A stretch of DNA of 35,063 nucleotides from a virus: positions 1 to 35,063 of the IMG/VR virus record IMGVR_UViG_3300047562_000914. The stretch is one strand, 5' to 3'. Each line of letters begins with the position of its first letter. The first letter of the stretch is position 1. Below are positions 878 through 25,847 of this stretch, one piece after another. A program made the translations under genes and the position numbers. The notes below the pieces were generated by a model. That model searched no databases, was not told the DNA's origin, and saw nothing but the letters and a program-made list of their open reading frames with translations.

Positions 878-896
878 TTTTGCGATTCGTATTACT

Positions 897-902: not shown

Positions 903-1000
903 TACTAATTACAGGTATTTGAAATGCAATCAAATATCTTGATTCTGTAACACTACTATACAGAAAACGAAATAAAATATTAAATTGGTATTATATGAAA

Positions 1001-1085
1001 CGGAAAGGAGAGGATTCGAACCTCCGGAGGCTTTCACCTCTTTTGTTTTCAAGACAAACGCCTTAAACCACTCGGCCACCTTTCC
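1001..1085 (-). tRNA. tRNA-Ser (anticodon UGA)
   Basis: Acceptor arms GGAAAGG and CCTTTCC pair fully. The anticodon loop CTTGAAA gives UGA. A long variable arm, typical of serine tRNAs, separates the anticodon and T arms, and the T loop is TTCGAAT. CCA is not encoded. It lies eleven bases downstream of the small zinc-ribbon gene and reads UCA-type codons. Confidence 0.93.
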
Positions 1086-1095
1086 AATGTTAAGT

Positions 1096-1341
1096 TCAAC
1101 GAACTTCGAAGTCTAACCTACGAACTTTGCGTTGTCTTCTTGCCTCTTGCCAGGCAATATCTTGAGAAGTTAGAACGTTCTTTTGTTCTTTCTGTGTAGA
1201 GTTTACCATAACTACTCTACTTAAGTCAACAGCCGAAACACTATCACCTTTAACGGTCATCATATTAGGACAACCACAAACTTGAGTTTTATTTGTGCCA
1301 GTTAATTCTCTGTTGCAATCTCTGCATCTTACTATAATCAT
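1096..1341 (-). CDS. Small zinc-ribbon-like protein, 81 residues
   Basis: The N-terminal third carries Cys residues spaced as CRDC and, after a short loop, CGC (about residues 6-24), which looks like a compact zinc-binding ribbon. The C-terminal part is basic, with an ARRQRKVRR segment near the end. Small proteins of this kind are common in T4-like phages and often bind nucleic acid or RNA polymerase, but nothing in the sequence fixes the partner. It lies between the Dps-like gene (15-base gap) and tRNA-Ser, so it is probably cotranscribed with them. Confidence 0.7.
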
Positions 1342-1356
1342 AATTCATAAATCCTG

Positions 1357-1791
1357 TCATTGTGTAAATGACCTTAACATCCAGATAAATTTGCCGTGTT
1401 CTTCATTTAAATCATCAACAAGGTTTGTTGTTCCTCTCGACTTTTGTGTCTCTGCTTCTTCGGCAACTTGACCCAAAAGTTCCACAATCTTTTCATGACA
1501 TTTGATCAAGTCATTCACCATTCCCATAGCATCTAGTGAACTATTTGCCTCTTCAACCTGAGATACTTGAGTGATTCTTGTTAAAGTAGGAACTGGTTTA
1601 ATATTTAGATATCTCATATGTTCGGTCAGACGGTCTATCTGTTCGAACATTGCTTCATAATGAGCACCAAATAAATCGTGGAACTCTTTAAAGTTAGGAC
1701 CAACTACATTCCAATGATACACCCAAGTTTTTTGAAACAATACAAAAAGACTTGCTTGAGTATCAGAAAGTAATTTATATAGTGTTTCCAT
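1357..1791 (-). CDS. Dps/ferritin-like protein
   Basis: The 144-residue protein matches the Dps fold family: the block around YHWNVVGPNF (residues 25-34) followed by FHDLF and YEAMFEQID is the family's ferroxidase region. By alignment from memory with E. coli Dps, His26, His38, Asp53 and Glu57 correspond to His51, His63, Asp78 and Glu82. The position equivalent to Asp67 is Gly42, so one iron ligand seems to be missing. Family members form a 12-subunit shell that oxidises and stores iron and protects DNA. I chose the ATG at 1791 because longer frames run into tRNA-Val and would split the conserved start. A late-type CATAAATA motif lies 17 bases upstream. Confidence 0.8.
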   Translation of the reverse strand: METLYKLLSDTQASLFVLFQKTWVYHWNVVGPNFKEFHDLFGAHYEAMFEQIDRLTEHMRYLNIKPVPTLTRITQVSQVEEANSSLDAMGMVNDLIKCHEKIVELLGQVAEEAETQKSRGTTNLVDDLNEEHGKFIWMLRSFTQ

Positions 1792-1807
1792 TATACTTTT
1801 TTGTAAG

Positions 1808-1815
1808 TATTTATG
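1808..1815 (-). promoter_or_regulatory. T4-type late promoter, one mismatch (CATAAATA)
   Basis: CATAAATA on the minus strand differs from the T4 late -10 consensus TATAAATA at one base and lies 17 bases before the Dps-like ATG. T4 late promoters need only this element, recognised by the phage sigma factor gp55. Confidence 0.45.
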
Positions 1816-1819
1816 AAAG

Positions 1820-1891
1820 TGGGCGATGAGGGATTCGAACCCCCGACCTACTCCGTGTAAAGGAGGCACTCTACCACTGAGTTAATCGCCC
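1820..1891 (-). tRNA. tRNA-Val (anticodon UAC)
   Basis: Acceptor arms GGGCGAT and ATCGCCC pair fully, the anticodon loop TTTACAC gives UAC, and the T loop is TTCGAAT. Discriminator A; CCA not encoded. Length 72. The first pair of the anticodon stem looks mismatched (C with T), otherwise it is canonical. Confidence 0.93.
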
Positions 1892-1894
1892 GTG

Positions 1895-1966
1895 TCCTCT
1901 GTCTGGGAATCGAACCCAGTATCCAAGTGCATTGTCTGCCTGTCCTTACCAATAGACTACCAGAGG
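1895..1966 (-). tRNA. tRNA-like sequence, anticodon not assignable
   Basis: This 72-base sequence has an acceptor stem (CCTCTG with CAGAGG), a short D arm with TTGGTAA in the loop, and a perfect T arm (CTGGG, TTCGATT, CCCAG). The anticodon region does not form a normal five-pair stem with a U at position 33; the best pairing is a short GCA/TGC helix closing a GACAA loop. A second copy with the same oddity lies at 3000-3072. It may be a degenerate tRNA or a stable tRNA-like RNA. Confidence 0.6.
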
Positions 1967-1969
1967 AAA

Positions 1970-2070
1970 GGTGATGAGTGCCCATCACCAGCGGAAGACA
2001 CTTTCCGCGATTTTCACTGCATTAGAGGGCAGTGAAGATATGATAGAATCAGACATTTCCAACCCTATCA
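1970..2070 (-). ncRNA. Array of four consecutive hairpins between two tRNA genes
   Basis: Four perfect inverted repeats follow each other: ggtgatg/catcacc (1970-1989), gcggaa/ttccgc (1991-2008), ttcactgc/gcagtgaa (2013-2036) and tgatag/ctatca (2041-2070, loop 18). Arms are 7, 6, 8 and 6 pairs; the first three loops are 6-8 bases. Nothing here is coding. It is presumably transcribed with the flanking tRNAs and could be a stable structured RNA, comparable in position to the non-tRNA stable RNAs of the T4 tRNA cluster. Strand is assumed from the neighbours. Confidence 0.6.
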
Positions 2071-2071
2071 A

Positions 2072-2143
2072 CTCCCCAACCTCGATTCGAACGAGGGACA
2101 GCAAAATTAACAGTTTTGAGTTCTACCACTGAACTATTGGGGA
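2072..2143 (-). tRNA. tRNA-Asn (anticodon GUU)
   Basis: Acceptor TCCCCAA with TTGGGGA, anticodon stem CAAAA/TTTTG around loop CTGTTAA (GUU), T loop TTCGAAT. Discriminator G; no encoded CCA. Its 5' end overlaps the last ten bases of the HNH gene. Confidence 0.94.
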
Positions 2144-2439
2144 ATATTTACAAAAGAAGGTTTGTGATAGATTGTAAATCCAGCGTGGAGTTCTCTATGA
2201 CAATTGGCACATAACATATAACATTTATCTGCCTCTTTCTTTTGTTTTTCCAAAGATTTTGTAGAACCAGAAATTTGGAACTCTTTTGTAGTTTCGTCTA
2301 TGTGGTGAAACTCAAGTGCTTCAAAACATCTATTATAACCACAAAATTCACACTTGCCTCCTTTATATTCAACAAGCAGTTCTTTAGTTCTTTTTCTCCA
2401 GTTTCCTACATTTTTCTTTAGTTTTTGTTGGTCTCTCAT
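2134..2439 (-). CDS. HNH endonuclease, probable free-standing homing nuclease
   Basis: The 101-residue protein has a basic N-terminus followed by CEFCGY, the FHHID motif and CANCHRELH (roughly residues 30-86): a zinc-supported HNH nuclease with catalytic His pair and two CxxC pairs. Such small HNH genes in phage tRNA clusters are usually selfish homing endonucleases that cut phages lacking them. It has its own perfect late promoter 26 bases upstream, and its stop codon lies inside the 5' end of tRNA-Asn, so the two genes overlap by ten bases. A role in packaging, as for some phage HNH proteins, is less likely in this context. Confidence 0.85.
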   Translation of the reverse strand: MRDQQKLKKNVGNWRKRTKELLVEYKGGKCEFCGYNRCFEALEFHHIDETTKEFQISGSTKSLEKQKKEADKCYMLCANCHRELHAGFTIYHKPSFVNIPQ

Positions 2440-2464
2440 AGTGATTAACTTAATGCGTTAATCA

Positions 2465-2472
2465 TATTTATA
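2465..2472 (-). promoter_or_regulatory. T4-type late promoter TATAAATA
   Basis: Perfect TATAAATA on the minus strand, 26 bases before the HNH ATG at 2439. It gives the HNH gene its own late transcription inside the tRNA cluster. Confidence 0.65.
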
Positions 2473-2497
2473 AGAGAATAAGAACCAAAAGGTTCAG

Positions 2498-2568
2498 AGC
2501 GAAATACGGGATTCGAACCCGTGACACCAACTTGGAAGGATGGGATGTTACCACTACACCAATTTCGC
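2498..2568 (-). tRNA. tRNA-Gly (anticodon UCC)
   Basis: Acceptor GCGAAAT with ATTTCGC, anticodon loop CTTCCAA (UCC), T loop TTCGAAT with a GGG/CCC-rich T stem. Discriminator U; no encoded CCA. Length 71. Confidence 0.92.
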
Positions 2569-2573
2569 GTTAG

Positions 2574-2604
2574 GACAATCATAAACTATTTGAGTTTGAT
2601 TGTC
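2574..2604 (-). repeat. Inter-tRNA hairpin spacer, copy 1
   Basis: GACAATC and GATTGTC form a seven-pair inverted repeat in the spacer between tRNA-Gly and tRNA-Arg. Related spacers occur at 2685-2715 and 2964-2993 in the same orientation. Confidence 0.6.
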
Positions 2605-2606
2605 AA

Positions 2607-2680
2607 CGACTCAGGAGGGACTTGAACCCCCGACCAACTGCTTAGAAGGCAGATGCTCTATCCAACTGAGCTACTGAGTC
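2607..2680 (-). tRNA. tRNA-Arg (anticodon UCU)
   Basis: Acceptor GACTCAG with CTGAGTC, anticodon loop CTTCTAA (UCU), T loop TTCAAGT. Discriminator G; no encoded CCA. Reads AGA, a codon favoured by AT-rich genomes. Confidence 0.94.
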
Positions 2681-2684
2681 ATGG

Positions 2685-2715
2685 GACAATCTTAAGGCAG
2701 GACCTTCAGATTGTC
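2685..2715 (-). repeat. Inter-tRNA hairpin spacer, copy 2
   Basis: GACAATCT and AGATTGTC pair over eight bases, and AAGG/CCTT extends the helix after one mismatch. It lies between tRNA-Arg and tRNA-Leu and closely resembles copy 3 in sequence, including the trailing CAAGTG. Confidence 0.65.
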
Positions 2716-2718
2716 AAG

Positions 2719-2802
2719 TGGGGCGAGCGGGACTTGAACCCGCAAGGTCTAACGACCGACTGATTTTAAGTCAGTTATGTTTACCAATTTCATCACCGCC
2801 CC
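2719..2802 (-). tRNA. tRNA-Leu (anticodon UAA)
   Basis: Acceptor GGGGCGG with TCGCCCC (one G-T pair), anticodon stem ACTGA/TCAGT around CTTAAAA (UAA), long variable arm as expected for leucine, T loop TTCAAGT. Length 84. Confidence 0.94.
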
Positions 2803-2807
2803 TTAGG

Positions 2808-2880
2808 TGCTCCTTGCGTGGATCGAACACGCCTCAGGCGAATTATGAGTTCGCTGCATTCACCAGATTGCTAAAGGAGC
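2808..2880 (-). tRNA. tRNA with CAU anticodon (Met elongator or Ile2)
   Basis: Acceptor GCTCCTT with AAGGAGC, anticodon stem GCGAA/TTCGC around CTCATAA (CAU), T loop TTCGATC. The CAU anticodon could be elongator methionine, or isoleucine if the C is converted to lysidine by host TilS. The full first acceptor pair argues against an initiator. Since an Ile(UAU) tRNA is encoded next to it, methionine is the simpler reading. Confidence 0.9.
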
Positions 2881-2881
2881 A

Positions 2882-2954
2882 ATGAGACTGCGGAGAATTG
2901 AACTCCGTTCACACCGTTATAAGCAGTGGGCCTTAACCAATAGGCGACAGTCCC
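2882..2954 (-). tRNA. tRNA-Ile (anticodon UAU)
   Basis: Acceptor GGGACTG with CAGTCTC (one G-T pair), anticodon stem CACTG/CGGTG around CTTATAA (UAU), T loop TTCAATT. It starts two bases after tRNA(CAU). An isoleucine tRNA with unmodified-type UAU is rare in bacteria, which normally read AUA with lysidine-modified CAU. Confidence 0.92.
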
Positions 2955-2963
2955 GCGAACAAA

Positions 2964-2993
2964 ACAATCATAAGGCATCAACCTCAGATTGTC
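2964..2993 (-). repeat. Inter-tRNA hairpin spacer, copy 3
   Basis: ACAATC and GATTGT pair, with AGG/CCT inside the loop able to extend the helix. It shares the order and the CAAGTG tail of copy 2 and separates tRNA-Ile from the second tRNA-like sequence. Confidence 0.6.
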
Positions 2994-2999
2994 AAGTGT

Positions 3000-3072
3000 T
3001 CCTCTGGCTGGGAATCGAACCCAGTTTCCATGTGTGTTGTCCACCCGTCCTTACCAATAGACTACGCAGAGG
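3000..3072 (-). tRNA. Second tRNA-like sequence, anticodon not assignable
   Basis: Closely related to 1895-1966: same acceptor CCTCTG/CAGAGG, same D-loop TTGGTAA and same T arm. The anticodon region again lacks a normal stem and U33. The best local pairing, GTG/CAC around GACAA, differs from the first copy's GCA/TGC by compensating changes, which suggests the odd helix is selected rather than random decay. Confidence 0.6.
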
Positions 3073-3075
3073 AAA

Positions 3076-3155
3076 TGCCGTGTGGTTGTGAATCTAAATC
3101 AAAACTCTTTGATAATCGCCCCACTGCATCTTATCTCAAGTTTTGAACCACGGCA
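3076..3155 (-). ncRNA. Structured RNA between tRNA-like sequence and tRNA-Lys
   Basis: An 80-base non-coding block is closed by TGCCGTG..GTT (3076-3087, two-base bulge) pairing with AACCACGGCA (3146-3155). It can continue inward through CAAAACT (3100-3106) with AGTTTTG (3139-3145). A competing hairpin, ATCAAA/TTTGAT (3098-3113), uses the same bases, so two exclusive folds exist. No known riboswitch is recognised. Confidence 0.55.
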
Positions 3156-3229
3156 ATGGGTCTGGAGAGGCTCGAACTCTCAACTTCCAGGTTAAAAGCC
3201 CGTTACTCTACCATTGAGTTACAGACCCA
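3156..3229 (-). tRNA. tRNA-Lys (anticodon UUU)
   Basis: Acceptor TGGGTCT with AGACCCA, anticodon loop CTTTTAA (UUU), T loop TTCGAGC. Its first base directly follows the stop codon of the upstream gene, with no spacer, so it must be released by processing from a common transcript. Confidence 0.92.
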
Positions 3230-3730
3230 TTAGAATCTAAATTTTCCAGGTTCTGTTGGTGGTTTATCCCTCACCAACTCATTAATAATACCACTCTCAG
3301 ATTGCTCGGTCAATCCCTCTGTGCCACTTGTAGAGGTGTCTATGCAATCAGGAACCCATGAAGCACATAATCTCATTTCTCCACCCAATAAACTCTGAGC
3401 TTTTGAGCCATCTGGAGCCTTCTCTATGAACCTAGGCAAAGGTATTTTAGGTGGATCTAAACCTCGTGTCAAGTCCTCATACTCCCTAATTGCTCTATCA
3501 ACATCTCTTTCCACTCTCCTTTTGACTAGATTAGGATCTTGGAGTAGAACATCGTTGATTATGGTCTGTGGGAAGAACTCCCTCTGTACCTCGTCTAGGA
3601 GGTCCCAGAGCGCCTCCTGTGGCGCTCCTGTGCATTGGGAGAGGGTTGCTACGATAGCACTGAGTATGGCGCTTATAATGATTAACTGCTTCTTGTCTAG
3701 TCTCTTCTTACCGAAATTAAAATTGAACAT
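3230..3730 (-). CDS. Membrane-anchored protein of unknown function, 166 residues
   Basis: After a basic start (GKKRLDKKQ) there is a hydrophobic helix at about residues 16-31 (IIISAILSAIVATLS), ending near a Cys that does not fit a strict lipobox. The rest is soluble, charged and then Pro/Ser-rich, and would lie outside the inner membrane. No family is recognised. It lies downstream of the RlpA-like gene, separated by a hairpin and a late-type promoter motif. A role in the envelope or lysis is possible but unproven. Confidence 0.65.
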   Translation of the reverse strand: MFNFNFGKKRLDKKQLIIISAILSAIVATLSQCTGAPQEALWDLLDEVQREFFPQTIINDVLLQDPNLVKRRVERDVDRAIREYEDLTRGLDPPKIPLPRFIEKAPDGSKAQSLLGGEMRLCASWVPDCIDTSTSGTEGLTEQSESGIINELVRDKPPTEPGKFRF

Positions 3731-3761
3731 AAAAAAAGAGGAGTAGCAACCGCTCCCCTCT
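3731..3761 (-). terminator. Intrinsic terminator after the RlpA-like gene
   Basis: On the minus strand AGAGG..AG pairs with CTCCTCT (two-base bulge), followed by seven T residues that abut the ATG at 3730. It ends the RlpA-like transcript or acts in the leader of the next gene. Confidence 0.65.
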
Positions 3762-3768
3762 ATTTATT
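3761..3768 (-). promoter_or_regulatory. Late-type promoter motif (AATAAATA)
   Basis: AATAAATA on the minus strand, 31 bases before the ATG at 3730, one base from the T4 late consensus. Transcription from it would start within the hairpin at 3731-3761. Confidence 0.35.
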
Positions 3769-4315: not shown

Positions 4316-4534
4316 TTACCGAACATCAATCTCTTGCTCATCGGTCCAATCCTCATCCTCAAGGCAAAGATATTCAAGTTCTTCTACACCTTCGGGTAAA
4401 TTAATCCATTCATCAAACTCAGCAAGCAGTGCCTGAGCGTTCTTGTGTCGATCTGCTTCATGGAGAAGTTCAATCTTGTTGATTGCCCACTCACGAACTT
4501 GTGCTACAGGTTCGCTTTCAATCTCGGTTTCCAT
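4316..4534 (-). CDS. Acidic protein of unknown function, 72 residues
   Basis: The frame begins METEIESEPVAQVREWAINK and is helical and strongly acidic, ending in a Glu/Asp-rich tail. A longer version from 4750 would overlap the GIY-YIG gene by more than 230 bases and its added N-terminus has odd Ser/Thr-rich composition, so I prefer the ATG at 4534, which overlaps the end of that gene by only 17 bases. No family is recognised. A terminator follows. Confidence 0.55.
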   Translation of the reverse strand: METEIESEPVAQVREWAINKIELLHEADRHKNAQALLAEFDEWINLPEGVEELEYLCLEDEDWTDEQEIDVR

Positions 4535-4961
4535 AGTAATCTTTTCTGAAGTACCTGTTGAGGATGTTGCTATTGTAGAAGGCTGGTTCTCCGTTGTCAA
4601 GTGATTCGGTGAGGACATTATGGGTGAATAGTCTTCGGGTCTCTTCGAAGTTTGTTTTGCCCTTTGTTTTATGTAATGATAAGATAGATCGACTAAAATT
4701 TTGTCTACCAAATTTGATAATGTCTTCTTTAAGTTCTGGACAAGACCCATAATAGTTTTTCCAATCGGATTCGGATTTTACTTTTCGTTTTTTACCTTTT
4801 GGTGTTCTAAACGACCAAAGGTACTTCCTACCAATATATTTTTTTCCGTTGAGATTATTTTCTATCAGATAAACGAACCCAAAATAGTCCTCAATATCGG
4901 CACTGGTGAAAGGATTCCCATTATAGATCCAAGGGTTGTCATAGTCAATATCTGTACTCAT
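4518..4961 (-). CDS. GIY-YIG-like endonuclease
   Basis: The 147-residue protein has the order FVYLIEN, then KKYIGRKYL (about residues 30-48), matching the GIY and YIG strands of the GIY-YIG nuclease fold, followed by basic helix KGKKRKVKSESDWKNYYGS. An Asn-rich C-terminal part carries a late Glu (NGEPAFYNSN). Proteins of this kind recur in T4-like cyanophages and are annotated as putative homing or repair nucleases. The start at 4961 is ATG; a TTG precedes it. It overlaps both neighbours by about 17 bases, like a normal operon gene rather than a fresh insertion. Confidence 0.7.
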   Translation of the reverse strand: MSTDIDYDNPWIYNGNPFTSADIEDYFGFVYLIENNLNGKKYIGRKYLWSFRTPKGKKRKVKSESDWKNYYGSCPELKEDIIKFGRQNFSRSILSLHKTKGKTNFEETRRLFTHNVLTESLDNGEPAFYNSNILNRYFRKDYYGNRD

Positions 4962-5106
4962 CAATTATATCAAGGACTTCGTTGATGTATTTATGGGCTA
5001 GTCCTTTCATATCCATTTCTGGTCGAATATGATCTTTATGAAGTTTATCCTTTAATTTTAATATACGAACTTTTATTTCGTCTTTAGACAATTGATTCTT
5101 AGGCAT
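4945..5106 (-). CDS. Small basic helical protein, 53 residues
   Basis: The frame begins MPKNQLSKDEIKVRILKLKD and is a highly charged helical protein that overlaps the next gene's start by 17 bases. It is likely translated together with the GIY-YIG gene. It begins right after a terminator-like hairpin (5108-5132) and has no clear ribosome-binding site. My impression is that relatives occur in cyanomyovirus genomes; function unknown. Confidence 0.6.
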   Translation of the reverse strand: MPKNQLSKDEIKVRILKLKDKLHKDHIRPEMDMKGLAHKYINEVLDIIDEYRY

Positions 5107-11765: not shown

Positions 11766-11773
11766 TATTTATA
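11766..11773 (-). promoter_or_regulatory. T4-type late promoter TATAAATA
   Basis: Perfect TATAAATA on the minus strand, 36 bases before the ATG of the Ig-like virion protein. It directly follows the T run of the terminator at 11774-11796. Confidence 0.8.
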
Positions 11774-16948: not shown

Positions 16949-17950
16949 TCAGAGACCCTTAGCGTGTCTGGTTTTACCACTCTCATCAGTCCAGGTTTCC
17001 CTTTCTTTTCTTGGAGTGACATAACCTACACCAGGAACAGCACCAGTCTTACCTTGTGCTCTTGCCTCGTTTCTTGCTGCTGCTCTTTGTGCTGCTCTCT
17101 TACGATTCTTCTCGTAATTGGTCATTGCCTCATCAAGCCACGCTTCAAACTCTTCTTTATTAATTTCTGCTGCTCTTCTTGCTGCTTTGTTTCCAGTTCC
17201 ATCATAGTTCTGTTTCTTAATTGGATTTTTAGCCATGGTTGGAGTCATTGGAGTTCCACCCAGACCTTCTCTATCAAAGCGACCTCTACCAGAACCACGA
17301 ATTTGTCTGATTTGAGCAACATTATCACCTTTACCTGGTTTTGCTCTACCAGAAGGAGTAGAACGCTTGGCAATCATTTCTGCTGCTTTTGCTTTACCCT
17401 TTTCGCTATAGATTGCTTCATCAAGTTCTTCCTCGCCAAGAATAATATCAATTGCTTCTTCGTCAATGATATTTGCCATCATCCACTCTGCCTCTTCCAG
17501 AGTTTCTGCGTATCCTTCTACACAGAGAAACTCCATAATCATATCAAAAAGATCAAAAGTCTCATCACCCATATTAAGTTGCTTTCTCTCATTAGGAGTC
17601 AGAGCACCTCTCTGAGCACCTCTTGCTGCCTGCTTTGCCTTTACCTTAGGATCATCAGACTTATGTGCATATCCATGAAGTCCAGGATTTGATGAAGCAG
17701 TCTTACGGAAATCACCTCTCTGCTTTCTAGCATAGGTTTGTCTTTGCTTTGTCTTGCTAGCATCACCGCCGAAGGTTGGTTTGTTCTCAAGTGCAGATGC
17801 TCTATCTGCTGCTTCACCACCACCAGCACGTTTGCGTAGTTTGGTTTCATCATAACCACGCTTTGCCATTGCGGTTGCTTCATCCACTTCTTGTGGAGCA
17901 TAAACTTCAGAATATGCTTCCATCAAACCTCTAAGTTCTTTGCTATCCAT
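16949..17950 (-). CDS. Charged virion-region protein, 333 residues
   Basis: The protein begins MDSKELRGLMEAYSEVYAPQ, then is very rich in Arg, Lys, Gly and Ala, with a central acidic block of about residues 127-180 (DETFDLFDMIMEFLCVEGYA) that has the pattern of a short helical domain repeated in cyanomyovirus virion proteins. The C-terminal third has RRAAEINKEE, shared with the 12043-13710 protein, and a basic tail. A perfect late promoter precedes it and a strong terminator follows. A DNA-binding or head-internal role would fit the composition; this is inference. Confidence 0.7.
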   Translation of the reverse strand: MDSKELRGLMEAYSEVYAPQEVDEATAMAKRGYDETKLRKRAGGGEAADRASALENKPTFGGDASKTKQRQTYARKQRGDFRKTASSNPGLHGYAHKSDDPKVKAKQAARGAQRGALTPNERKQLNMGDETFDLFDMIMEFLCVEGYAETLEEAEWMMANIIDEEAIDIILGEEELDEAIYSEKGKAKAAEMIAKRSTPSGRAKPGKGDNVAQIRQIRGSGRGRFDREGLGGTPMTPTMAKNPIKKQNYDGTGNKAARRAAEINKEEFEAWLDEAMTNYEKNRKRAAQRAAARNEARAQGKTGAVPGVGYVTPRKERETWTDESGKTRHAKGL

Positions 17951-17977: not shown

Positions 17978-17985
17978 TATTTATA
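17978..17985 (-). promoter_or_regulatory. T4-type late promoter TATAAATA joined to a terminator
   Basis: Perfect TATAAATA on the minus strand, 28 bases before the ATG at 17950. It starts where the T run of the terminator at 17985-18006 ends. Confidence 0.8.
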
Positions 17986-18006
17986 AAAAAAAGACCCCTA
18001 AGGGTC
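17985..18006 (-). terminator. Intrinsic terminator at the end of the mazG transcript
   Basis: GACCC/GGGTC with a four-base loop, then eight T residues on the minus strand. The stem overlaps the stop codon of the 18005-18190 gene. Confidence 0.8.
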
Positions 18007-18190
18007 AAACGCCAAGAACAGCACTAATACTATCATCAAGATCTTGAATTACATTACGAATATCAACCACACGAGGAGGAACACTCACTTCATCATATGT
18101 GTATCCTTTCTGGGCATCAAACAGAACTTGACGAACTGCTGCTGCACTACGAGTATTCATTTTAATTGCCACTTCGTTTTCTTCAGTCAT
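18005..18190 (-). CDS. Small protein after mazG, 61 residues
   Basis: The frame begins MTEENEVAIKMNTRSAAAVR and continues as a mixed helical protein without Cys or membrane segments. It overlaps the end of mazG by four bases and its stop lies in the terminator stem, so it is the last gene of the helicase-mazG transcript. No family is recognised. Confidence 0.6.
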   Translation of the reverse strand: MTEENEVAIKMNTRSAAAVRQVLFDAQKGYTYDEVSVPPRVVDIRNVIQDLDDSISAVLGV

Positions 18191-18591
18191 AGGTCTCCCA
18201 CTTTACGATTTTCAGAACGCTCAATACTAAATGCACCCTCAGGATAACGAGCACTTAGTTTCTCAAAGTTCATTTGGATTACTTCCTCAAGTGAAATATC
18301 AAGTCCAATACATGCCTGAGAAACGTACCACATAATATCACCAAGTTCACGCTTCAGGTGAAAAAGGTTTTCTTGGTTTACTGATTTTCCCTGAAAAACA
18401 ATTTTTTTTACAATCTCAGTAAATTCACCTGCCTCTGCACTCATACCTACAGCAGCAGTAAGCAATCGCTCGGTAGGAAACTCTTGTTCCCGTAGTTCCA
18501 TAAGGCGATTGATGAACGATGTGTGGTCTTTACTAGGATTAGAGGTAGTGGTATTAACGAACTCGACATACTTGTTCAAATCAATAGTCAT
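18187..18591 (-). CDS. mazG: MazG-like nucleotide pyrophosphohydrolase
   Basis: The 134-residue protein has the all-alpha NTP-pyrophosphatase signature: ExxE at Glu53/Glu56 in SAEAGEFTEI and ExxD at Glu82/Asp85 in RELGDIMWYV, which bind magnesium. MazG enzymes hydrolyse nucleoside triphosphates to monophosphates. Cyanophage MazG was proposed to lower ppGpp or to recycle host nucleotides; the true substrate is debated. Its ATG overlaps the stop of the gp41 C-terminal gene. Confidence 0.88.
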   Translation of the reverse strand: MTIDLNKYVEFVNTTTSNPSKDHTSFINRLMELREQEFPTERLLTAAVGMSAEAGEFTEIVKKIVFQGKSVNQENLFHLKRELGDIMWYVSQACIGLDISLEEVIQMNFEKLSARYPEGAFSIERSENRKVGDL

Positions 18592-19760
18592 TAGAATTTA
18601 AATCCCTCAAATGATTTTTTAGGTTTTCTTTCTTCATAATCATACTCTTCTTCTTTCCCATTGTCAAGAATGTCATTCTGAGCAGATTGTTCGCAATCAT
18701 AAAGACGCATCTTTGCTCTATCAATACCAATCACAAAACGCTTATGAATGGTAGGGTCATTATAACGATTCTTAAGTTGTTTTACAAGAATCTGCCCAAG
18801 TCCCTCAAGTTCCTCCGTAGAAATAAGAGCAAACATCAAGTCAGCAGTAGCAGGAAGACCAAACGATTCTGAAGTGTCAGTTAGTTCCACATCAGAAGAA
18901 CCATAACCGGAACGAGTTGTCTGAGTTGCACTTACGATAGGAACATTGAATTCCACGGCAAGACCACGAAGTTCTTCTGCGATTGCTTTTACAAAGGTAT
19001 AAGAGTTGATATTACTATTACCTTTATACCTACTGGAAGCACAGATGTTCAAGTAATCAATAAAGATAATATCAGGTTTGAATGATTTCTTAAGAGAAAG
19101 TTCATTCAATAGTGATTTGAAATGCCCCGCGTGAGCAGATGCGGTTGGATACTCTTTGATGATTAAAGTTCCTTGAGTTTTCTTCGCAAGGTTATTCACC
19201 TTAGTTTCAAAGATATTCTTAGGGAGATCCACAATATCTTGAATAGGAACATTCAGAAGGTTTGCATCAATTCTTTCAGCAATTCGCTCTTCTGCCATTT
19301 CAAGAGTGATGTAGAGCACATTTTTTCCTTGAAGAAGAACTGATGCTGCTACGTGACACATAAACAAGGATTTACCTACACCAGTATTATGAGAAGAAAC
19401 TCCATTAGTATAATACCTATGATTTGGATGATTTACATTAATATCAACAATAGGTATTTGATTTCCTGTTTTAAAAACACTACCAAGTTTATAACCATTT
19501 TTTGTTAGAAAATGATTTGTCTTGTATTTCTCATAAAGATGAGATGCTTTCATCCATCCAAGAGATGTTTGGAATAAATGATCGGCATTACATCTAATAG
19601 GTTCTCCACCATCAACCTTTAAAACATATTCATCATACATTCCTTTGTTGATAAAGAAATTGACTGGAACATATCCATCAGGCGAATCAACTTCTACCTC
19701 ATATCCATTATCAAGTAATGTTTTGATTTCAGCAATTGTTGTTTCTTTTTCAATCCACAT
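18591..19760 (-). CDS. 41: Replicative helicase gp41, C-terminal half fused to an intein C fragment
   Basis: Residues 1-125 are the C part of a split intein. They include block B-like CNADHLFQT (His61), block F-like IVDINVNHPNHRYYTNG, and the terminal His124-Asn125. Thr126 is the first helicase residue and would be the splicing nucleophile. From there TGVGKSLFMCH continues the Walker A loop, and LYITLEMAEERIAERI, IIFIDYLN (Walker B) and SATQTTRSGYG (motif with Gln) are DnaB-family helicase motifs. On its own this half lacks the first part of the P-loop, so it needs trans-splicing to function. No ribosome-binding site is obvious before the ATG. Confidence 0.93.
   Translation of the reverse strand: MWIEKETTIAEIKTLLDNGYEVEVDSPDGYVPVNFFINKGMYDEYVLKVDGGEPIRCNADHLFQTSLGWMKASHLYEKYKTNHFLTKNGYKLGSVFKTGNQIPIVDINVNHPNHRYYTNGVSSHNTGVGKSLFMCHVAASVLLQGKNVLYITLEMAEERIAERIDANLLNVPIQDIVDLPKNIFETKVNNLAKKTQGTLIIKEYPTASAHAGHFKSLLNELSLKKSFKPDIIFIDYLNICASSRYKGNSNINSYTFVKAIAEELRGLAVEFNVPIVSATQTTRSGYGSSDVELTDTSESFGLPATADLMFALISTEELEGLGQILVKQLKNRYNDPTIHKRFVIGIDRAKMRLYDCEQSAQNDILDNGKEEEYDYEERKPKKSFEGFKF
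19386..19760 (-). other. Intein C fragment (125 residues) of the split gp41 intein
   Basis: It begins MWIEKETTIAEIKTLLDNGY and ends with GVSSHN before Thr+1. No endonuclease domain is present. Compared with usual split inteins, where the C part is about 35-50 residues, this fragment carries most of the intein fold. Acidic residues outnumber basic ones about 12 to 5 in residues 1-60, opposite to the basic N fragment. Confidence 0.92.
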
Positions 19761-19764
19761 TTTA

Positions 19765-19772
19765 TATAAATA
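19765..19772 (+). promoter_or_regulatory. T4-type late promoter TATAAATA for the HNH gene
   Basis: Perfect TATAAATA on the plus strand, 21 bases before the ATG at 19794, with an AGGAAGT ribosome-binding site between. It is the only plus-strand late promoter serving a gene in this window. Confidence 0.75.
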
Positions 19773-19793
19773 ATAGTATTAGCAGGAAGTAAA

Positions 19794-20468
19794 ATGTTTA
19801 ATCAAATACATCATAACATAATAGAAGCAGGATGTAAAAGAAAACTAGAGTATAAGGAAAAAAGTGGTCTACATAAACACCACATCATACCAAAGCATTC
19901 TGGTGGTAGTGATAATGAAGAAAATTTTTCATACTTAACGGAAAGAGAACATTTCATAGTTCATTATTTGCTATGGAAAATAAATCATAATGTAAATGAT
20001 TTATGGTCTGCTCAATTTTTAAGAAAAAAATTTTATATCCCAAAAGACATAAGAAAGACTCAAGCATCTAAAGGAGGAAAAATTGGAGGAAAAAAACAAG
20101 CAGAACTTGGATTAGGATTTCATCAATATAAAAATAATAAAGAACTTCACAAAGAATGGGCATCTCTTGGAGGAAAATCGCACAAAGGTAAAAAAGTTAT
20201 GCATAAACCAGGAGATGCTACTTTTATAAGAGTAAATCCAAAAGATATTGATTTTTATTTAGAAAAAGGATACATTTTTGGATCACCAATAGAGAGTCCA
20301 AATAAAGGAATAAAAACCAATAAACCATCACCAAGAAGAAGAAAAGTTAGTGATGGAATAAACATTTATGATTCTATTACCGATGCGGCATTAAAAAATA
20401 ATATTACGGTTGGAGCAATGGTTCAAAGATGCAAATCAAAAAAATCTAAATGGCACTACATTTCCTAA
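19794..20468 (+). CDS. HNH homing endonuclease with NUMOD-type DNA-binding tail
   Basis: The 224-residue protein is the only plus-strand gene. Residues 27-60 hold the HNH nuclease core: HKHHIIPKHSGG, then NFSYLTEREHFIVHYLL, with His residues placed for metal and catalysis. The middle repeats Gly-Gly-Lys stretches (SKGGKIGGKK, SLGGKSHKGK) like NUMOD3-type DNA-binding elements. The C-terminus, INIYDSITDAALKNN to KSKWHYIS, is a NUMOD1-type helix-turn-helix. Such enzymes cut alleles that lack them. It lies between the two gp41 halves, antisense to them, and its last 23 bases overlap the end of the N-terminal gp41 gene. It has its own late promoter. Confidence 0.9.
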   Translation: MFNQIHHNIIEAGCKRKLEYKEKSGLHKHHIIPKHSGGSDNEENFSYLTEREHFIVHYLLWKINHNVNDLWSAQFLRKKFYIPKDIRKTQASKGGKIGGKKQAELGLGFHQYKNNKELHKEWASLGGKSHKGKKVMHKPGDATFIRVNPKDIDFYLEKGYIFGSPIESPNKGIKTNKPSPRRRKVSDGINIYDSITDAALKNNITVGAMVQRCKSKKSKWHYIS

Positions 20469-21084
20469 ACCTAATTTTAACTTTGGTTTCTGGATGAACA
20501 CAACCAGCAAGAGCGATATTGAGAGTCTTATTAGGTAAACCACCTTTTGTAATTTTGTTAAAGTACTCAAGGTCGAATTCAATTTTATCCTCCTTTTTGT
20601 GATAAGACTCGTATCGTTGTTCATAATCTTGTAGGTAATCATGCCCTACATGATTGTCAAAACTAACAGCAAGAGCATCAGAAAGAATAGTAGGAATGCT
20701 ATCCCTATTTTTCTTTTCATCATTTCCATCCGCAATATGAATAGATTCCATAAGAGCAAGATAGATTGCTCTATCACGACACCACTTTTCAGTAGTGGTT
20801 AGCAACCAATTCATTTCAACAGGAACATCTTCCAAACATCCAATCAGATGAATGATTTCTTTGAATGATTGTTCAGAAATATCCTTTCTATTTTCTACTT
20901 CAATACAAAGAATTTCCTTAGTTGTTGGTTTGTTATATTCTTGGACAAAGGAAAGTATTTCCTCAAACACAATCCTTTGATTTGTATCTTCAAAATATTC
21001 AGATTTTAGAAATGGTATTACTTTTCTAATATAGTCTTCATTGTGTAAAAGGTTTCTAAGGATTAGAAACTCAACCTTCTCCAT
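20446..21084 (-). CDS. 41: Replicative helicase gp41, N-terminal half ending in an intein N fragment
   Basis: Residues 1-194 are the helicase N-terminal domain and linker, starting [20 protein letters not shown] and ending [11 protein letters not shown], just before the P-loop glycines. Residues 195-212 are intein: Cys1 in [14 protein letters not shown] and a short end, stopping at a TAG that lies inside the antisense HNH gene. Joined to the C half (264 residues) the product is 458 residues with AGTGVGKS, close to T4 gp41 (475). It overlaps the end of uvsX by 14 bases. A simple frameshift or nonsense mutation does not explain it, because real intein termini flank the gap. Confidence 0.93.
20449..20502 (-). 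other. Intein N fragment (18 residues) of the split gp41 intein
   Basis: It starts with the catalytic Cys and a block A-type strand, [12 protein letters not shown], and stops after RKCSAI. At 18 residues it is far shorter than common split N fragments (about 90-120 residues) and similar in size class to the 25-residue N part of AceL-TerL. Net charge is about +4. The last seven codons are encoded opposite the HNH stop region. Confidence 0.9.
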
Positions 21085-22078
21085 AACTAAATTCCTTTCG
21101 TGCGATTTCGTCCAGTTGTTGCATTACTTCTTCAGTGAAATATACTTCAGGTTCTTTTAGAATCTGTTTAGCATAAATCTTCTTACCATCAATCTCATAT
21201 CGTCCTGCTACATTCTTCCAAAGTCCACCAATCTCACCGAGTTCAAGAAGACCATAATATCGATCAAGACCACGCTCATCGTAATACAAACGAATCTCAA
21301 CATCTTTATTTTCCTTACTCAAACGCGACTTAGCAGTCTTAGCTTTGATAATATTGCCGACCACTTCTGTTCCATCCTTTTCTTTCTTTTTGCTGAGATA
21401 AATGATTGTACTTGCTGCGTATTTGAGTCCAGAACCTCCCCCCATTTCCTTCGTTGGTACATAAGCTCCGATGACATCGTATGTATGATTTGTGACAAGG
21501 AGTGGAACATTTGCTTGACCTAGTTTGAGTGTGAGCATTCGGAAAGCACCTTTGACAAGTTGTGATTTAGTCATATCACGAACTTGCTTGTCATTTAGTG
21601 CATCAGTAATTTCTTTCTCGGTAGAAAGCATACCCAAAGAGTCTAGCACAAACATACAAGGTTTGCGACTTTCTACAGGTGCTTTCAAATACATATCTAC
21701 TGCCTTAAGTGCCTTTCCACGAAACTCTTCTATGGTGACAACATTAACCACGACAAGACGAGATGTGTCGATGCCTCGTGACTCCACGAGTGATTTGGTA
21801 ATAGCGGCTTCAGTATCAAAGTAGAGACAATAACCATCGGGATTAGAATCAAGAAAATTCTTAACAACGGCGAGGCTGAAGAAAGTCTTTCCAGTACTAG
21901 ACTCTCCAGCAATAGCAGTAATCTTATTCCCAGATACACCACCAAATATGCTACCTGAAACCAGTGCATTAAAAATGTATGAACCCGTATCAACATATCT
22001 TTCAGTTTCATCAATGTCTGCAGCAAGTTGTGTATACTCACCACCAATCTCTTTTACAATATCTTTAAGAAAGTCCAT
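21071..22078 (-). CDS. uvsX: UvsX RecA-like recombinase
   Basis: The 335-residue protein has Walker A GESSTGKT (residues 58-65), a Walker B-like [11 protein letters not shown], and the RecA-core segment [11 protein letters not shown], with a Gly-rich loop [12 protein letters not shown]. It drives strand exchange for recombination-dependent replication and repair, with UvsY and gp32. T4 UvsX is 391 residues; cyanophage versions are shorter. It overlaps gp41-N by 14 bases and a small upstream gene by 14 bases. Confidence 0.96.
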
Positions 22079-22205
22079 TATTTTTTTCCTTAATCAAGTA
22101 GTTAATTTTATAAGACCAAAGTTTAGCATAAATTTTACTATTAGTTCTTTTCAATATTTGAATTATTTCGTCTAATTCTTTTTCAGAAAGAGGTAGTTTT
22201 ATCAT
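22065..22205 (-). CDS. Small protein between gp43 and uvsX, 46 residues
   Basis: The frame begins [20 protein letters not shown] and is a charged helical protein. Its ATG shares a base with the gp43 stop codon (TGATG) and its end overlaps uvsX by 14 bases in another frame, so it is tightly coupled to both. It is too small for a domain call; my impression is that a small gene stands here in several cyanomyoviruses. Confidence 0.7.
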
Positions 22206-24712
22206 CAACAAAAAAACGATTCAAGGTTTGCTGTTTTTTCCACGTTCCACCCAATAGCATTAAGAATAATTCTAAGTGGTTCTAGGAATGCTTTCTCAAA
22301 TTGTAGATCATAGTCAATGTATTTGTCAATCTCAAGTTCTCGGGGGAAATCCTGAATAAATGAAATGATATTTTCATGTATTGGATTTGGTTTCTTTAGA
22401 TAGCAAAATTTAATCTTTTCACCATTCTGAATAAGTGAATATTTATTTGTTAGATTATTCTTTTTGATGTAGTAATTGAACAATAGTGCTCCACGAACTT
22501 GAATAGGAGTTCCTTTAACATAAATTGCAGATGAAGAATGATATTTTTGAACATCCGAAACTGATCTTGGGAAAGAAATAGATTCTGGGGGAAGTGATTT
22601 AAATTCTGATCGACATTTATCAATGTAATCCACAACGTCCTCTTCAGTTCCACTCATCATAATTTTAAATGTGTCTTTGAACATTTTACGACAAGGCGCT
22701 GGAGTAGAAGATTTGATTGCCTCAATGCCCTTGATTTTCAATTTGGGTTCTTCATAACGAACCCCCTCACTATCCCAAACACTCAGAATATATCGCTTCT
22801 TTGCGGTCCAAATACCGCGTTCAGCAACACACTCTCGCTTCATAAACATCTTCTGATCATATGCATTCACATATTCAGCCAGTTTTTCGTAAGAACTCTC
22901 AATATACTTTTCAAGTTCCACCTGACAGACCTTATCAAGGAACGAAACAATGCCTTCAGTAGTTTTTTCTCTTCCTTTGAATACAGTTTCCACCAAAGGA
23001 CCCATATTAACATAAAGGGAATCAGTGTCTGAAGCAATAACATAATCAACATCCTGCGTCTTTAGAATCTTGTTTAGATAAGAATTCATAGAATTCATAA
23101 TCCATTGAATAGAAACTTGCCCAGAAAGCGTGATTGCTTCAGCATTTGCTAGTTTGAAATATCGGAAATACTGATTACCAATGGCACCATAGGCAGAGTT
23201 GAGTTGAATCTTACGTGCCATCTGAATGTTATTACAGCGGGCAATCTCTTTCTCCAAGTCTTTAGTTTTCTTCTTTTCATACTCTTGCTCTGCAGCAAGC
23301 ATTTTCTTTTTGAAGACAACACGTTCATTGTATATTTTCTCCATCAACTCCGGAAGAAATCCACGAACATCTTTGCGATACATTGCGCCATTAGCACAAA
23401 TCGCATACTCCTTATACAACTCAAAATTCATCTCTTCATTCAGAATTTTATCCACATTTACTGTGGGATGCCTTTCATCAAGAAGAGTTTCTGGTGAGAT
23501 GTTATATTGCATGATCAAGTGAGGGTATAGAGAGTTCAAGTCAAAACTCACAACCCAGTCATAAACCCCAGGAATTGGTTCCTTTACATATGCACCAGCA
23601 TACTTTTCGTCTTTAGCAGAACGTTCTTTGGGTGGAATGACAATGTTTCTTTTCTTAAGATAGTTGTAGATAATAGTATCCCACATCCTGACCTGAGAAA
23701 ACACATCAGAATAATTTACTTTTGCGTCATATGCCATAGTAAGGGCAAGTTCAATCAGTTTCATCTTGTCTTCCATTCGGTCAACAAGTTCTACGTCAAC
23801 GATGTTATACTCTACGAACTTCTGCCAACCTTTGGTATAAAAATCTTTGAAAGTATCAAACTCAGAGTGGTCCAGTTTCTTTTGCCCAAGTTCTACCTCG
23901 GCAATGTAGTCTAAGCGATAGGTTTCCTGCGCCTTATAAGTGAATTTCTTATAAAGATCCAAATAATCTAACTGAGAAATTCCACCAACATCCATACAGA
24001 TCTGTTGGCGATTATTCGCAAAGACTTCATTTTGAGTCACAAGACCCCAAGGAGAAAAACTCTTCATTCTCTTCTCACCTAAAACCTTTGCCAATCGTCC
24101 ACAAATATATGGAATATCGTAAAACTGAATGTTCCATCCAGTCACAATCTCAGGAAGATGATCTGGATGATCCCAATAGTTCATAAAGCGAGTAAGAAGA
24201 TCATGCTCCGAACTACACTGGATATAATTTACATCCTTCCTCTTGTTATTGAAAGGTCCATTGCCCCAAGTGATAATTTGCTTTGTAGCATAATCCATCA
24301 TCGTGATGAGAAGGATTTCCTGGTCACAAGTCTTTGGGTCTGGAAATCCATTCTCAGATGCAACCTCAATATCAAGAGATACTAGTCTGATTTTATTGAT
24401 ATCAAATTTGATCTCATCACTCGGATATTTGTCAGAGATATATTGAAAAACATACCTATCATTTCCGTAAATTTTAAATCCATCTACATTGTCATACTTC
24501 TTATAGAACTCACGACAATCTCTAACTAATCCTGGTTTAATCGGTTCTAAAAAATCACCATCAAGCGATTTATATTTGGTTTCTTTTTTTGAAGGGACAA
24601 ATAATGTTGGGGAATATTCTTCCTTGAACATCACATGTTTGCCATTTTCATATCCACGAACGAGAAACTGGTTCCCGATCATTTGCACATTAGTATAGAA
24701 TCGCAAACTCAT
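22205..24712 (-). CDS. 43: Family B DNA polymerase, T4 gp43 type
   Basis: The 835-residue protein is complete, with all motifs in order: exonuclease Exo I DIE (114-116), Exo II NIQFYD (194-199), Exo III YNIVD (302-306); polymerase motif A DLNSLYP (391-397), motif B KIQLNSAYGAIGN (501-513) and motif C DTDS (562-565). The end, LESFFC, resembles the gp45 clamp-binding peptide of T4 gp43. It is the replicative polymerase with proofreading. T4 gp43 is 898 residues. No intein or intron is present, although polymerase genes are frequent targets. Confidence 0.98.
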   Translation of the reverse strand: MSLRFYTNVQMIGNQFLVRGYENGKHVMFKEEYSPTLFVPSKKETKYKSLDGDFLEPIKPGLVRDCREFYKKYDNVDGFKIYGNDRYVFQYISDKYPSDEIKFDINKIRLVSLDIEVASENGFPDPKTCDQEILLITMMDYATKQIITWGNGPFNNKRKDVNYIQCSSEHDLLTRFMNYWDHPDHLPEIVTGWNIQFYDIPYICGRLAKVLGEKRMKSFSPWGLVTQNEVFANNRQQICMDVGGISQLDYLDLYKKFTYKAQETYRLDYIAEVELGQKKLDHSEFDTFKDFYTKGWQKFVEYNIVDVELVDRMEDKMKLIELALTMAYDAKVNYSDVFSQVRMWDTIIYNYLKKRNIVIPPKERSAKDEKYAGAYVKEPIPGVYDWVVSFDLNSLYPHLIMQYNISPETLLDERHPTVNVDKILNEEMNFELYKEYAICANGAMYRKDVRGFLPELMEKIYNERVVFKKKMLAAEQEYEKKKTKDLEKEIARCNNIQMARKIQLNSAYGAIGNQYFRYFKLANAEAITLSGQVSIQWIMNSMNSYLNKILKTQDVDYVIASDTDSLYVNMGPLVETVFKGREKTTEGIVSFLDKVCQVELEKYIESSYEKLAEYVNAYDQKMFMKRECVAERGIWTAKKRYILSVWDSEGVRYEEPKLKIKGIEAIKSSTPAPCRKMFKDTFKIMMSGTEEDVVDYIDKCRSEFKSLPPESISFPRSVSDVQKYHSSSAIYVKGTPIQVRGALLFNYYIKKNNLTNKYSLIQNGEKIKFCYLKKPNPIHENIISFIQDFPRELEIDKYIDYDLQFEKAFLEPLRIILNAIGWNVEKTANLESFFC

Positions 24713-25389: not shown

Positions 25390-25412
25390 GCGCCGACGAT
25401 ATTCAGTTATAT

Positions 25413-25847
25413 TTATAGATAATCTTTACGCTTATGGTGGTCGGGAACAATTTTCTTTAAGTTGACAGAGAGGAGTCCATCTTCAAAGGATACATCTGCG
25501 ACTTCTGTATCGTCTGCCAGTGTCCATGCTCTCTTGAAAGATCGTTGAGCCAGTCCCTTATGGACGTAGTTGGCATCAGATTCTTTGTCTTCTTTTTGTC
25601 CTTCGACAAATAGTTTCCCATCTTGTGTATAGACATAAACCTCCTTCTTCTTAAATCCAGCAAGTGCAAGTTCAAGTCGTGATTCTACATTGCTTACTTG
25701 AACTAGGTTATATGGGGGATAATTAGAGGTTGTTTCATGAAGATGAAACAGACGGTCAAAGTATTCATCCATTCCAATGCTATTGCGAGTAATCCTTTCC
25801 ATCAGTGCAGGAAGGTCCGCAGCAGTATACCTTGTGAGGTTAGTCAT
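25413..25847 (-). CDS. hsp20: Small heat-shock protein, Hsp20/IbpA type
   Basis: The 144-residue protein has an alpha-crystallin domain at about residues 40-138. It contains NVESRLELALAGFKKKEV, KLFVEGQKED and the conserved FEDGLLSVNLKKIVP. Hsp20 proteins hold unfolding proteins for refolding and are almost universal in T4-like cyanophages. I chose the ATG at 25847, preceded by an ideal AAAGGAG ribosome-binding site eight bases away; a longer frame has no such signal. It has its own -10 element upstream and a terminator downstream, so it is a single-gene unit. Confidence 0.95.
   Translation of the reverse strand: MTNLTRYTAADLPALMERITRNSIGMDEYFDRLFHLHETTSNYPPYNLVQVSNVESRLELALAGFKKKEVYVYTQDGKLFVEGQKEDKESDANYVHKGLAQRSFKRAWTLADDTEVADVSFEDGLLSVNLKKIVPDHHKRKDYL

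What the first reader, a model, noticed from the sequence alone, without database searches (positions are those of the whole stretch)
18591..21084. gp41 helicase split inside Walker A by an atypically split intein
Seen directly: the gene at 20446-21084 ends LNIALAG then [12 protein letters not shown] and a stop. The gene at 18591-19760 starts with 125 intein residues ending SSHN, followed by TGVGKSLF. Joining them restores AGTGVGKS and a 458-residue helicase. The N fragment is 18 residues and the C fragment 125, the reverse of usual split inteins. Known phage gp41 split inteins (gp41-1 type) have a long N part and a short C part; short-N inteins such as AceL-TerL come from phage terminase genes. 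A short-N intein in the gp41 P-loop with Thr+1 looks new to me, and would be a trans-splicing pair with a very small N tag.
Basis: partly seen in the sequence, partly recalled or inferred. Interest (0 to 1): 0.95.

Follow-up and report, generated by a model that had tools for sequence, protein, structure and literature searches.

The report
Phage helicase split by tiny intein
A virus related to those of marine cyanobacteria makes its DNA-unwinding enzyme from two separate genes whose proteins are probably stitched together by a self-cutting protein element with an unusually small first piece, while a selfish DNA-cutting gene sits backwards between them.

Summary
On the minus strand gp41 is split inside Walker A: the N gene (20446-21084) ends NIALAG|18-residue IntN; the C gene (18591-19760) starts with a 125-residue IntC ending VSSHN|TGVGKS. 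It is a VidaL-type (short-N, S1-split) intein: best PDB sequence match VidaL, E 4e-10; a contiguous relative's predicted fold matches VidaL best (TM 0.88). VidaL's native gene is UvsX, also split in Walker A, so the class is known; I found no account of the gp41 site or its antisense endonuclease in the one library I could search. Of 70 resolved alleles, 64 are split (4 with nothing between the genes) and 6 contiguous. IntN and IntC are under purifying selection; the intein is patchy among gp41 genes. Endonuclease types swap between near-identical inteins, and the contiguous clade looks re-fused from a split ancestor. Four relatives (two complete) also carry the canonical gp41-1 split intein: a helicase in three genes. 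Splicing itself is inferred.

The parts
20446..21084 (-). gp41 N gene: 194-aa N-extein plus 18-aa IntN, stop at 20446-20448
   Evidence: PF00772 DnaB N domain, 24.6 bits against a cut-off of 23; PHROG_19 profile 161-361
20449..20502 (-). Int[19 protein letters not shown] (Cys1 first)
   Evidence: 14-residue core read in all 70 rows with an N-extein, 42 of them identical, omega 0.06
18591..19760 (-). gp41 C gene: 125-aa IntC plus 264-aa C-extein
   Evidence: PF03796 DnaB_C from residue 126; PHROG_19 from profile position 362
19386..19760 (-). IntC, with CNADH (block B region), VDINVNHPNHRYY (block F region) and C-terminal SSHN; Thr+1 follows. Block names recalled
19794..20468 (+). HNH homing endonuclease, 224 aa, antisense to gp41, with I-TevI-like C-terminal DNA-binding segment (that Pfam match is below its cut-off)
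   Evidence: HNH core kept in the 53 antisense ORFs collected, the window's included (52 by pattern; L028 by eye)
19765..19772 (+). TATAAATA, T4-type late promoter box (type recalled), 21 nt before the endonuclease ATG
   Evidence: present in 60 of 63 rows with antisense endonuclease similarity
19784..19789 (+). AGGAAG, Shine-Dalgarno-like, before the endonuclease ATG
20446..20468 (.). 23-bp convergent overlap of endonuclease 3' end and N gene 3' end
19761..19793 (.). 33-bp leader shared back to back by the C gene and the endonuclease; no SD-like site before the C gene

Best explanation
gp41 is made as two proteins. The 18-residue IntN at the end of the N half docks on the 125-residue IntC at the front of the C half, completing a VidaL-type HINT fold; Cys1, conserved His and Asp residues of IntC, its terminal Asn and Thr+1 carry out class-1 protein trans-splicing, releasing the intein and restoring the Walker A loop AG-TGVGKS in a 458-residue helicase. 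Because the break lies inside Walker A, neither half should be an active ATPase before splicing. The two intein halves flank a docking site for selfish genes: here an HNH homing endonuclease, inserted antisense behind its own late-type promoter box, which drives spread of the locus into gp41 genes or inteins that lack it. Shown here: gene structure, homology and predicted fold of the intein, conservation and selection, patchy distribution, endonuclease turnover. Inferred: splicing, endonuclease activity and target, late transcription.
For: Seamless helicase profile across the join. IntC matches VidaL (6vgv) at E 4e-10 over residues 3-123. AlphaFold model of the contiguous relative L041, pLDDT 94.9, matches 6vgv best: TM 0.88/0.86, rmsd 1.5, first of 50 PDB chains at E<=0.001; the split falls in the loop after strand 7-13. 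Invariant in 16 of 16 aligned IntC rows: C74, H78, D123, H131, H141, N142 in L041 numbering; Cys1 in all 70 rows with an N-extein. Pairwise omega: IntN 0.06 (37 distinct), IntC 0.28 (57) or 0.16 (34 close), exteins 0.09 and 0.11 (51, 49). IntN core net charge +3 to +5 in 70 of 70 rows; first 45 residues of IntC -6 to -11 in 79 of 79. IntC DNA identity exceeds extein identity in 968 of 1081 pairs of 47 loci; intein presence needs 11 changes on the gp41 tree, at least 7 forced by starred branches. TATAAATA on the endonuclease strand in 60 of 63 rows with antisense endonuclease similarity, 2 of 16 without; endonuclease omega 0.135 and 0.122 (36 and 4 distinct).
Against: No splicing has been shown. 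Pairwise omega counts related sequences many times, and many loci are near-copies. In 62 of 63 endonuclease-bearing rows the C gene has no SD-like site, so how it is translated is unclear, although 13 of 24 window ORFs that I picked, the C gene among them, lack one. L051, L071, L073 and L078 hit the endonuclease by tblastn but gave no ATG-started antisense ORF over 150 aa under my filter, and L020 keeps only a remnant. IntC omega is higher than that of the exteins. In the window alone five TATAAATA boxes are not more than chance gives (mean 2.1; 9 of 100 shuffles reach five); the promoter rests on conservation between loci.
Confidence: 0.92

Rival explanations
1. Genes in pieces without splicing: an endonuclease insertion cut gp41 in two, and the halves assemble non-covalently as in the Aeh1 NrdA case; the intein pieces are dead remnants.
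For: A precedent for endonuclease-made gene pieces that keep function is cited in PMC2988022 (reference list seen; details recalled).
Against: IntN and IntC are under purifying selection and keep the catalytic residues; the break is inside Walker A; 6 alleles have one contiguous intein with the same residues.
Confidence: 0.04
2. Broken gene or assembly error: gp41 is a pseudogene or the contig hides a continuous gp41 or intein.
For: The window itself is one 35-kb viral record.
Against: The same split recurs in 64 of 70 resolved alleles from contigs of many metagenome records, with exteins under strong purifying selection and the gene order uvsX-gp41-mazG of P-SSM2 kept, apart from one extra P-SSM2 gene.
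Confidence: 0.02
3. A rival to the endonuclease part only: the intein works as described, but the HNH gene does not mobilise the intein; it homes on the split junction of the intein itself (or is a bystander), and the intein spreads by ordinary phage recombination.
For: Nearly identical inteins carry different endonuclease types (L054 group against L055/L056; L068 against L065), and the window's type is 94% identical in inteins only 67-69% identical; 4 split alleles have nothing between the genes.
Against: IntC is more alike than the exteins in 968 of 1081 pairs, as expected if the whole cassette homes into intein-free gp41.
Confidence: 0.4

Closest known systems
VidaL split intein (PDB 6vgv, 6vgw)
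   Same: Homologous IntC (E 4e-10), same fold (TM 0.88 for contiguous relative L041), same S1 split, 16-residue IntN against 18 here, Cys1, inserted in a Walker A loop.
   Different: Native host is UvsX, split GESG|SGKS (Walker A x4/x5), Ser+1; sense-strand ORF, Vsr-like by eye, in L082/L083, none in L084/L085. Here the host is gp41, split after x2, Thr+1, antisense HNH.
gp41-1 split intein
   Same: Same host protein family; occurs in the same gp41 genes as this one in L012, L015, L045, L048 (L015 IntN matches 6riz at 7e-52).
   Different: Other site (after TRSGY/F), canonical split with 88-aa IntN and short IntC.
AceL-TerL, GOS-TerL and PolB16 OarG atypically split inteins
   Same: Naturally split near the N end: 25, 37 and 15 aa IntN (PMC11766414, PMC10189870, PMC13014065, passages).
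   Different: Terminase or PolB hosts; the TerL pair is split at S2, after the first helix; PolB16 uses Ser1.
Mycobacterial DnaBi1 intein
   Same: Inserted in the P-loop of a DnaB-type replicative helicase (PMC6195587, passages).
   Different: Contiguous mini-intein, class 3, the P-loop serine as +1 residue.
'Fractured genes' with split inteins and an endonuclease between (Dassa 2009)
   Same: Gene broken inside an intein with a homing endonuclease gene in the gap. Paper not held, seen only as a citation; content recalled.
   Different: Recalled: canonical splits and a Vsr-like endonuclease family; here a short-N split and an antisense HNH.

Membership tests
VidaL-type atypically split inteins | Sequence homology to VidaL IntC | tested here: met
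   E 4e-10, residues 3-123
VidaL-type atypically split inteins | HINT fold nearest VidaL | tested here: met
   Model of contiguous relative L041, not of the window's own halves: TM 0.88/0.86 to 6vgv, first of 50 chains at E<=0.001
VidaL-type atypically split inteins | S1 split, IntN about 16 residues | tested here: met
   18 here, 14 to 23 in the split relatives, 16 the commonest; VidaL 16
VidaL-type atypically split inteins | Catalytic residues Cys1, block B His, block F Asp/His, terminal His-Asn, +1 nucleophile | tested here: met
   the labels of the blocks are recalled
VidaL-type atypically split inteins | Trans-splicing activity | not testable with these tools
   needs expression
gp41-1 type (canonical) split inteins | Long IntN (88 in gp41-1), short IntC, site after TRSGY | tested here: not met
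   18/125 and AG|TG site; the gp41-1 site is unoccupied in the window
HNH homing endonucleases | HNH domain plus DNA-binding tail | tested here: met
   PF01844 23.2 bits, above its cut-off of 21.4; I-TevI_DNA-bd 21.6 bits, below its cut-off of 27; phrog_655 homing endonuclease 1e-13
HNH homing endonucleases | Cleaves an allele lacking the element | not testable with these tools
   needs a DNA cleavage assay

The most novel reading that the evidence does not exclude
The split inside this intein is a reversible, reusable docking site: different endonucleases and cargo genes enter and leave between the halves, the gene persists split without them, and at least one lineage has re-fused a split intein into a contiguous one by deleting the insert (the IS residues of L041's RKIS are left over from the endonuclease's 3' end). 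Some of these phages build one helicase from three genes by two different split inteins, this one and gp41-1.
Probability: 0.55. Interest if true: 0.75.

Novelty: new variant of a known kind. Interest (0 to 1): 0.62.

Why it matters
It puts a natural IntN of 16-18 residues, with Cys1 and Thr+1 and mostly +4 against -7 charge, beside VidaL as a candidate protein-ligation tool with many natural variants. More broadly, contiguous, split, endonuclease-bearing and endonuclease-free alleles of one intein coexist at one site, so how inteins become split, and whether splitting can be undone, becomes directly testable. T4's own endonuclease genes run with their neighbours except segD, for which no promoter was found (PMC2988022, passages); a conserved antisense endonuclease with its own late-type promoter box inside a replication gene differs from that.

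Tried and rejected
Group I intron or other RNA element in 18000-22300: the only Rfam match at E<=1 was a snoRNA model below its cut-off, at 22147-22213. Bacterial homes: no relative confirmed in GTDB genome contigs (two short peptide patterns, 140 stretches matched, none encoding a relative). Isolated phages: 294 records match IntC, none at 60% identity or more (the tool says records very near the window may be left out); the best, 11 PA5oct-like records at 36%, are UvsX genes where annotated by function or read here. The 22-aa IntN end alone found nothing in the PDB. I set aside the ankyrin-repeat matches of IntC. The MIJ3 paper's PolB split intein (PMC6892783, passages) is a different, canonical one. 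My first HNH pattern was too strict (37 of 53); a looser one gave 52 of 53, and L028 keeps the core by eye. In one search contiguous or split was called by open-frame length: L075 was wrongly called contiguous (it is split), and most UvsX rows called split were not checked for their N gene, so from that midpoint-rooted tree I use only the places of the contiguous gp41 rows L280, L259 and L041. Not settled: whether an intein named T4Lh-1 (recalled from Neugebauer 2017, seen only as a citation; three unrelated papers hold the string) belongs to this gp41 set. Absence from print rests on the listings, in one open-licence library only.
Full report
What is there. On the minus strand the order is uvsX (21071-22078), gp41 N gene (20446-21084), gp41 C gene (18591-19760), mazG (18187-18591), the order uvsX-gp41-mazG of Prochlorococcus phage P-SSM2, whose gp41 is a single gene and which has one extra gene before mazG. 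The N protein ends [24 protein letters not shown]; the C protein begins with 125 residues ending VSSHN and continues TGVGKSLF. PHROG_19 covers the N protein to profile position 361 and the C protein from 362. In the gap, on the plus strand, lies a 224-aa HNH endonuclease with an I-TevI-like DNA-binding tail, preceded by TATAAATA and AGGAAG. The record is a 35,063-base virus record that is the window itself. Its polymerase is nearest to Synechococcus phages (76% at best) and its gp41 C part to a marine single-cell virus contig and Synechococcus phages (85% and 83.5%).

What it is. IntC matches the solved VidaL intein (E 4e-10). A contiguous relative (L041, 142 aa) folds with mean pLDDT 94.9, and its best match in the PDB is VidaL, TM 0.88, rmsd 1.5. 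The window's break corresponds to residues about 14-18 of that model, a loop after strand 7-13: the S1 position described for VidaL in PMC13014065 (passages). The IntC residues that I take for catalytic are invariant among 16 aligned rows, and Cys1 in all 70 rows with an N-extein.

Where VidaL comes from. Scanning viral contigs with VidaL's IntC found five loci. In L082-L085 the host is UvsX: the N gene ends VFAGESG|CLPKEAVVQIRLTKKG in L082 and L083 (one IntN residue differs in L084 and L085), 16 residues; the C gene runs VSHN|SGKS, read in L082, L084 and L085. L082 and L083 have a sense-strand ORF of about 380 codons between (interrupted by a stop in L083), L084 and L085 only a 55-nt gap, and L086 (58% identical) is contiguous. 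Pseudomonas phage PA5oct carries the short-N arrangement in UvsX with an ORF of about 480 codons between, annotated only as separate genes. Wider relatives sit in other Walker A loops: contiguous in gp41-like genes L280 and L259, in a DnaB-like gene L268 and in what reads like a UvrD-type helicase, L257 (the gene names of L257 and L268 are my reading of the sequence). So this is a family of Walker A inteins, known from VidaL, of which gp41 is one branch.

The gp41 branch. A scan with IntC found 85 stretches, 81 encoding a relative, 80 kept. Of these 80 loci plus the window, 11 hold no usable N-extein (the contig begins inside the gap or the gene); in the other 70 both IntN and IntC can be read: 6 contiguous (L037, L039-L043), 4 split with no gene between (L026, L027 with 8 nt; L053 and L070 with overlapping stop and start), and 60 split with 592-1575 nt between. 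Of those 60, 53 have an antisense ORF over 150 aa of the HNH type; the other seven are L020 (endonuclease remnant) and L045 (no endonuclease match), both with a sense ORF, L051, L071, L073, L078 (endonuclease similarity but no such ORF under my filter) and L069 (endonuclease on the sense strand). Some loci also carry a sense ORF between the N gene and the endonuclease; of 13 such gap ORFs read, 8 resemble window ORF 16949-17950 by eye. Many loci are near-copies: 57 distinct IntC sequences stand behind 79 rows.

Selection and spread. Omega by pairwise counting is 0.06 for IntN, 0.28 for IntC (0.16 in the close clade), 0.09-0.11 for the exteins and 0.12-0.135 for the endonucleases. IntC is more alike between phages than the exteins in 968 of 1081 pairs of 47 loci; nine pairs have exteins under 78% and IntC at 97% or more, such as L029 and L030 (74% and 100%); no pair had exteins at 90% or more with IntC under 80%. 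Among 133 gp41 proteins (47 of the 70 with the intein, those with both exteins complete; 86 without), presence needs 11 changes, at least 7 forced by starred branches; an intein-free gp41 92% identical to the window's exists, L186.

Endonuclease turnover. The window's endonuclease type is 94% identical in L055, L056 and L065, whose IntC is only 67-69% identical, while L054, with IntC nearly identical to L055's, carries the other type at 40%. A scan for close relatives of the window's endonuclease confirmed six loci, all at this site: three read directly (L283, L287, L288), the other three (L284-L286) being the contigs of L065, L055 and L056. L057's endonuclease joins the front of one type to the tail of the other, by eye. 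TATAAATA lies on the endonuclease strand in 60 of 63 rows with antisense similarity and in 2 of 16 without; the background in these loci is 0.11 per kb of strand. In the window alone five boxes are within chance.

Re-fusion. On the IntC tree the contiguous rows sit inside a supported clade (100/100) of 15 rows whose nine other members all show endonuclease similarity; branches inside it are near zero and weakly supported. Their junction reads RFRKIS|WWIEKE, and the DNA for IS is part of the GATTTCTTG that ends the endonuclease gene in neighbours such as L030 and L032; L026 keeps a longer stretch, GATTTCTTGATTATGGAATTT, as in L032. The simplest reading is deletion of the insert from a split ancestor. 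Contiguous L280 and L259 branch at the base of the gp41 part of a midpoint-rooted tree, so the gp41 branch may have begun contiguous, been split, and been re-fused in L041's clade. This is inference from few sequences; the six contiguous contigs are near-identical and may be one event.

Three-piece helicase. L015 and L045 (complete) and L012 and L048 (5' cut) also carry the canonical gp41-1 split intein at the TRSGY/F site; L015's IntN matches solved gp41-1 at E 7e-52. There gp41 comes from three genes. L041 carries gp41-1 beside the contiguous P-loop intein, and L040, L042 and L043 show the same break.

Mechanism. IntN cores carry charge +3 to +5 and the first 45 residues of IntC -6 to -11, fitting electrostatic docking followed by class-1 trans-splicing; the unspliced halves lack a whole Walker A loop. 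With nothing between the genes, L070 and L053 have IntN's own AGGA codons as a possible ribosome site for IntC; with the endonuclease, 62 of 63 rows have none within 18 nt, which remains unexplained, though 13 of 24 window ORFs that I picked, this C gene included, lack one within 20 nt.

Known or new. Short-N split inteins and P-loop inteins are known. I found no account of a short-N split intein in gp41, of its antisense endonuclease or of re-fusion in the listings named under Tried and rejected, in one open library; Dassa 2009, Bachmann 2015 and Burton 2020 were not held, Thiel 2014 and Neugebauer 2017 were seen only as citations, and I recall, without a call to support it, an intein named T4Lh-1 that may be a helicase member.

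Noticed in passing
L087 (NC_071039.1 PA5oct) 760-3766: UvsX of cultured Pseudomonas phage PA5oct is split by a short-N VidaL-type intein (GESG|CLPETAKVKIRLSKKQS stop; IntC|SGKS) with a ~480-codon ORF between; annotated only as separate genes.
   Followed up: partly
L015, L045 (complete); L012, L048 (5' cut): gp41 in three genes: this intein plus the canonical gp41-1 split intein in the same helicase.
   Followed up: partly
gap between N gene and C gene in L001-L008, L011, L013, L018, L020, L022, L025, L031, L045, L050: Sense ORFs between the gp41 halves; of 13 gap ORFs read (L069 and L078 included), 8 resemble window ORF 16949-17950 by eye, and some follow TATAAATA boxes on the sense strand.
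   Followed up: partly
window 2465-2472, 11766-11773, 17978-17985, 25410-25417 (minus): Four further TATAAATA boxes, three of them 25-35 nt before ORF starts (2439, 11730, 17950); the number in the window is within chance, the placement was not tested.
   Followed up: no
window 2134-2439 and 4518-4964 (minus): A small HNH ORF (Pfam match below its cut-off) and a SegE-like GIY-YIG endonuclease (Pfam E 2.9e-54).
   Followed up: no
L257 4001-4366; L268 4001-4297; L253 290-706: VidaL-type intein matches in Walker A of what reads like a UvrD-type helicase (L257) and of another DnaB-like lineage (L268, L253).
   Followed up: partly
L083 294-1421: The sense ORF inside split UvsX has an in-frame stop, unlike L082; possibly a decaying endonuclease.
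   Followed up: no
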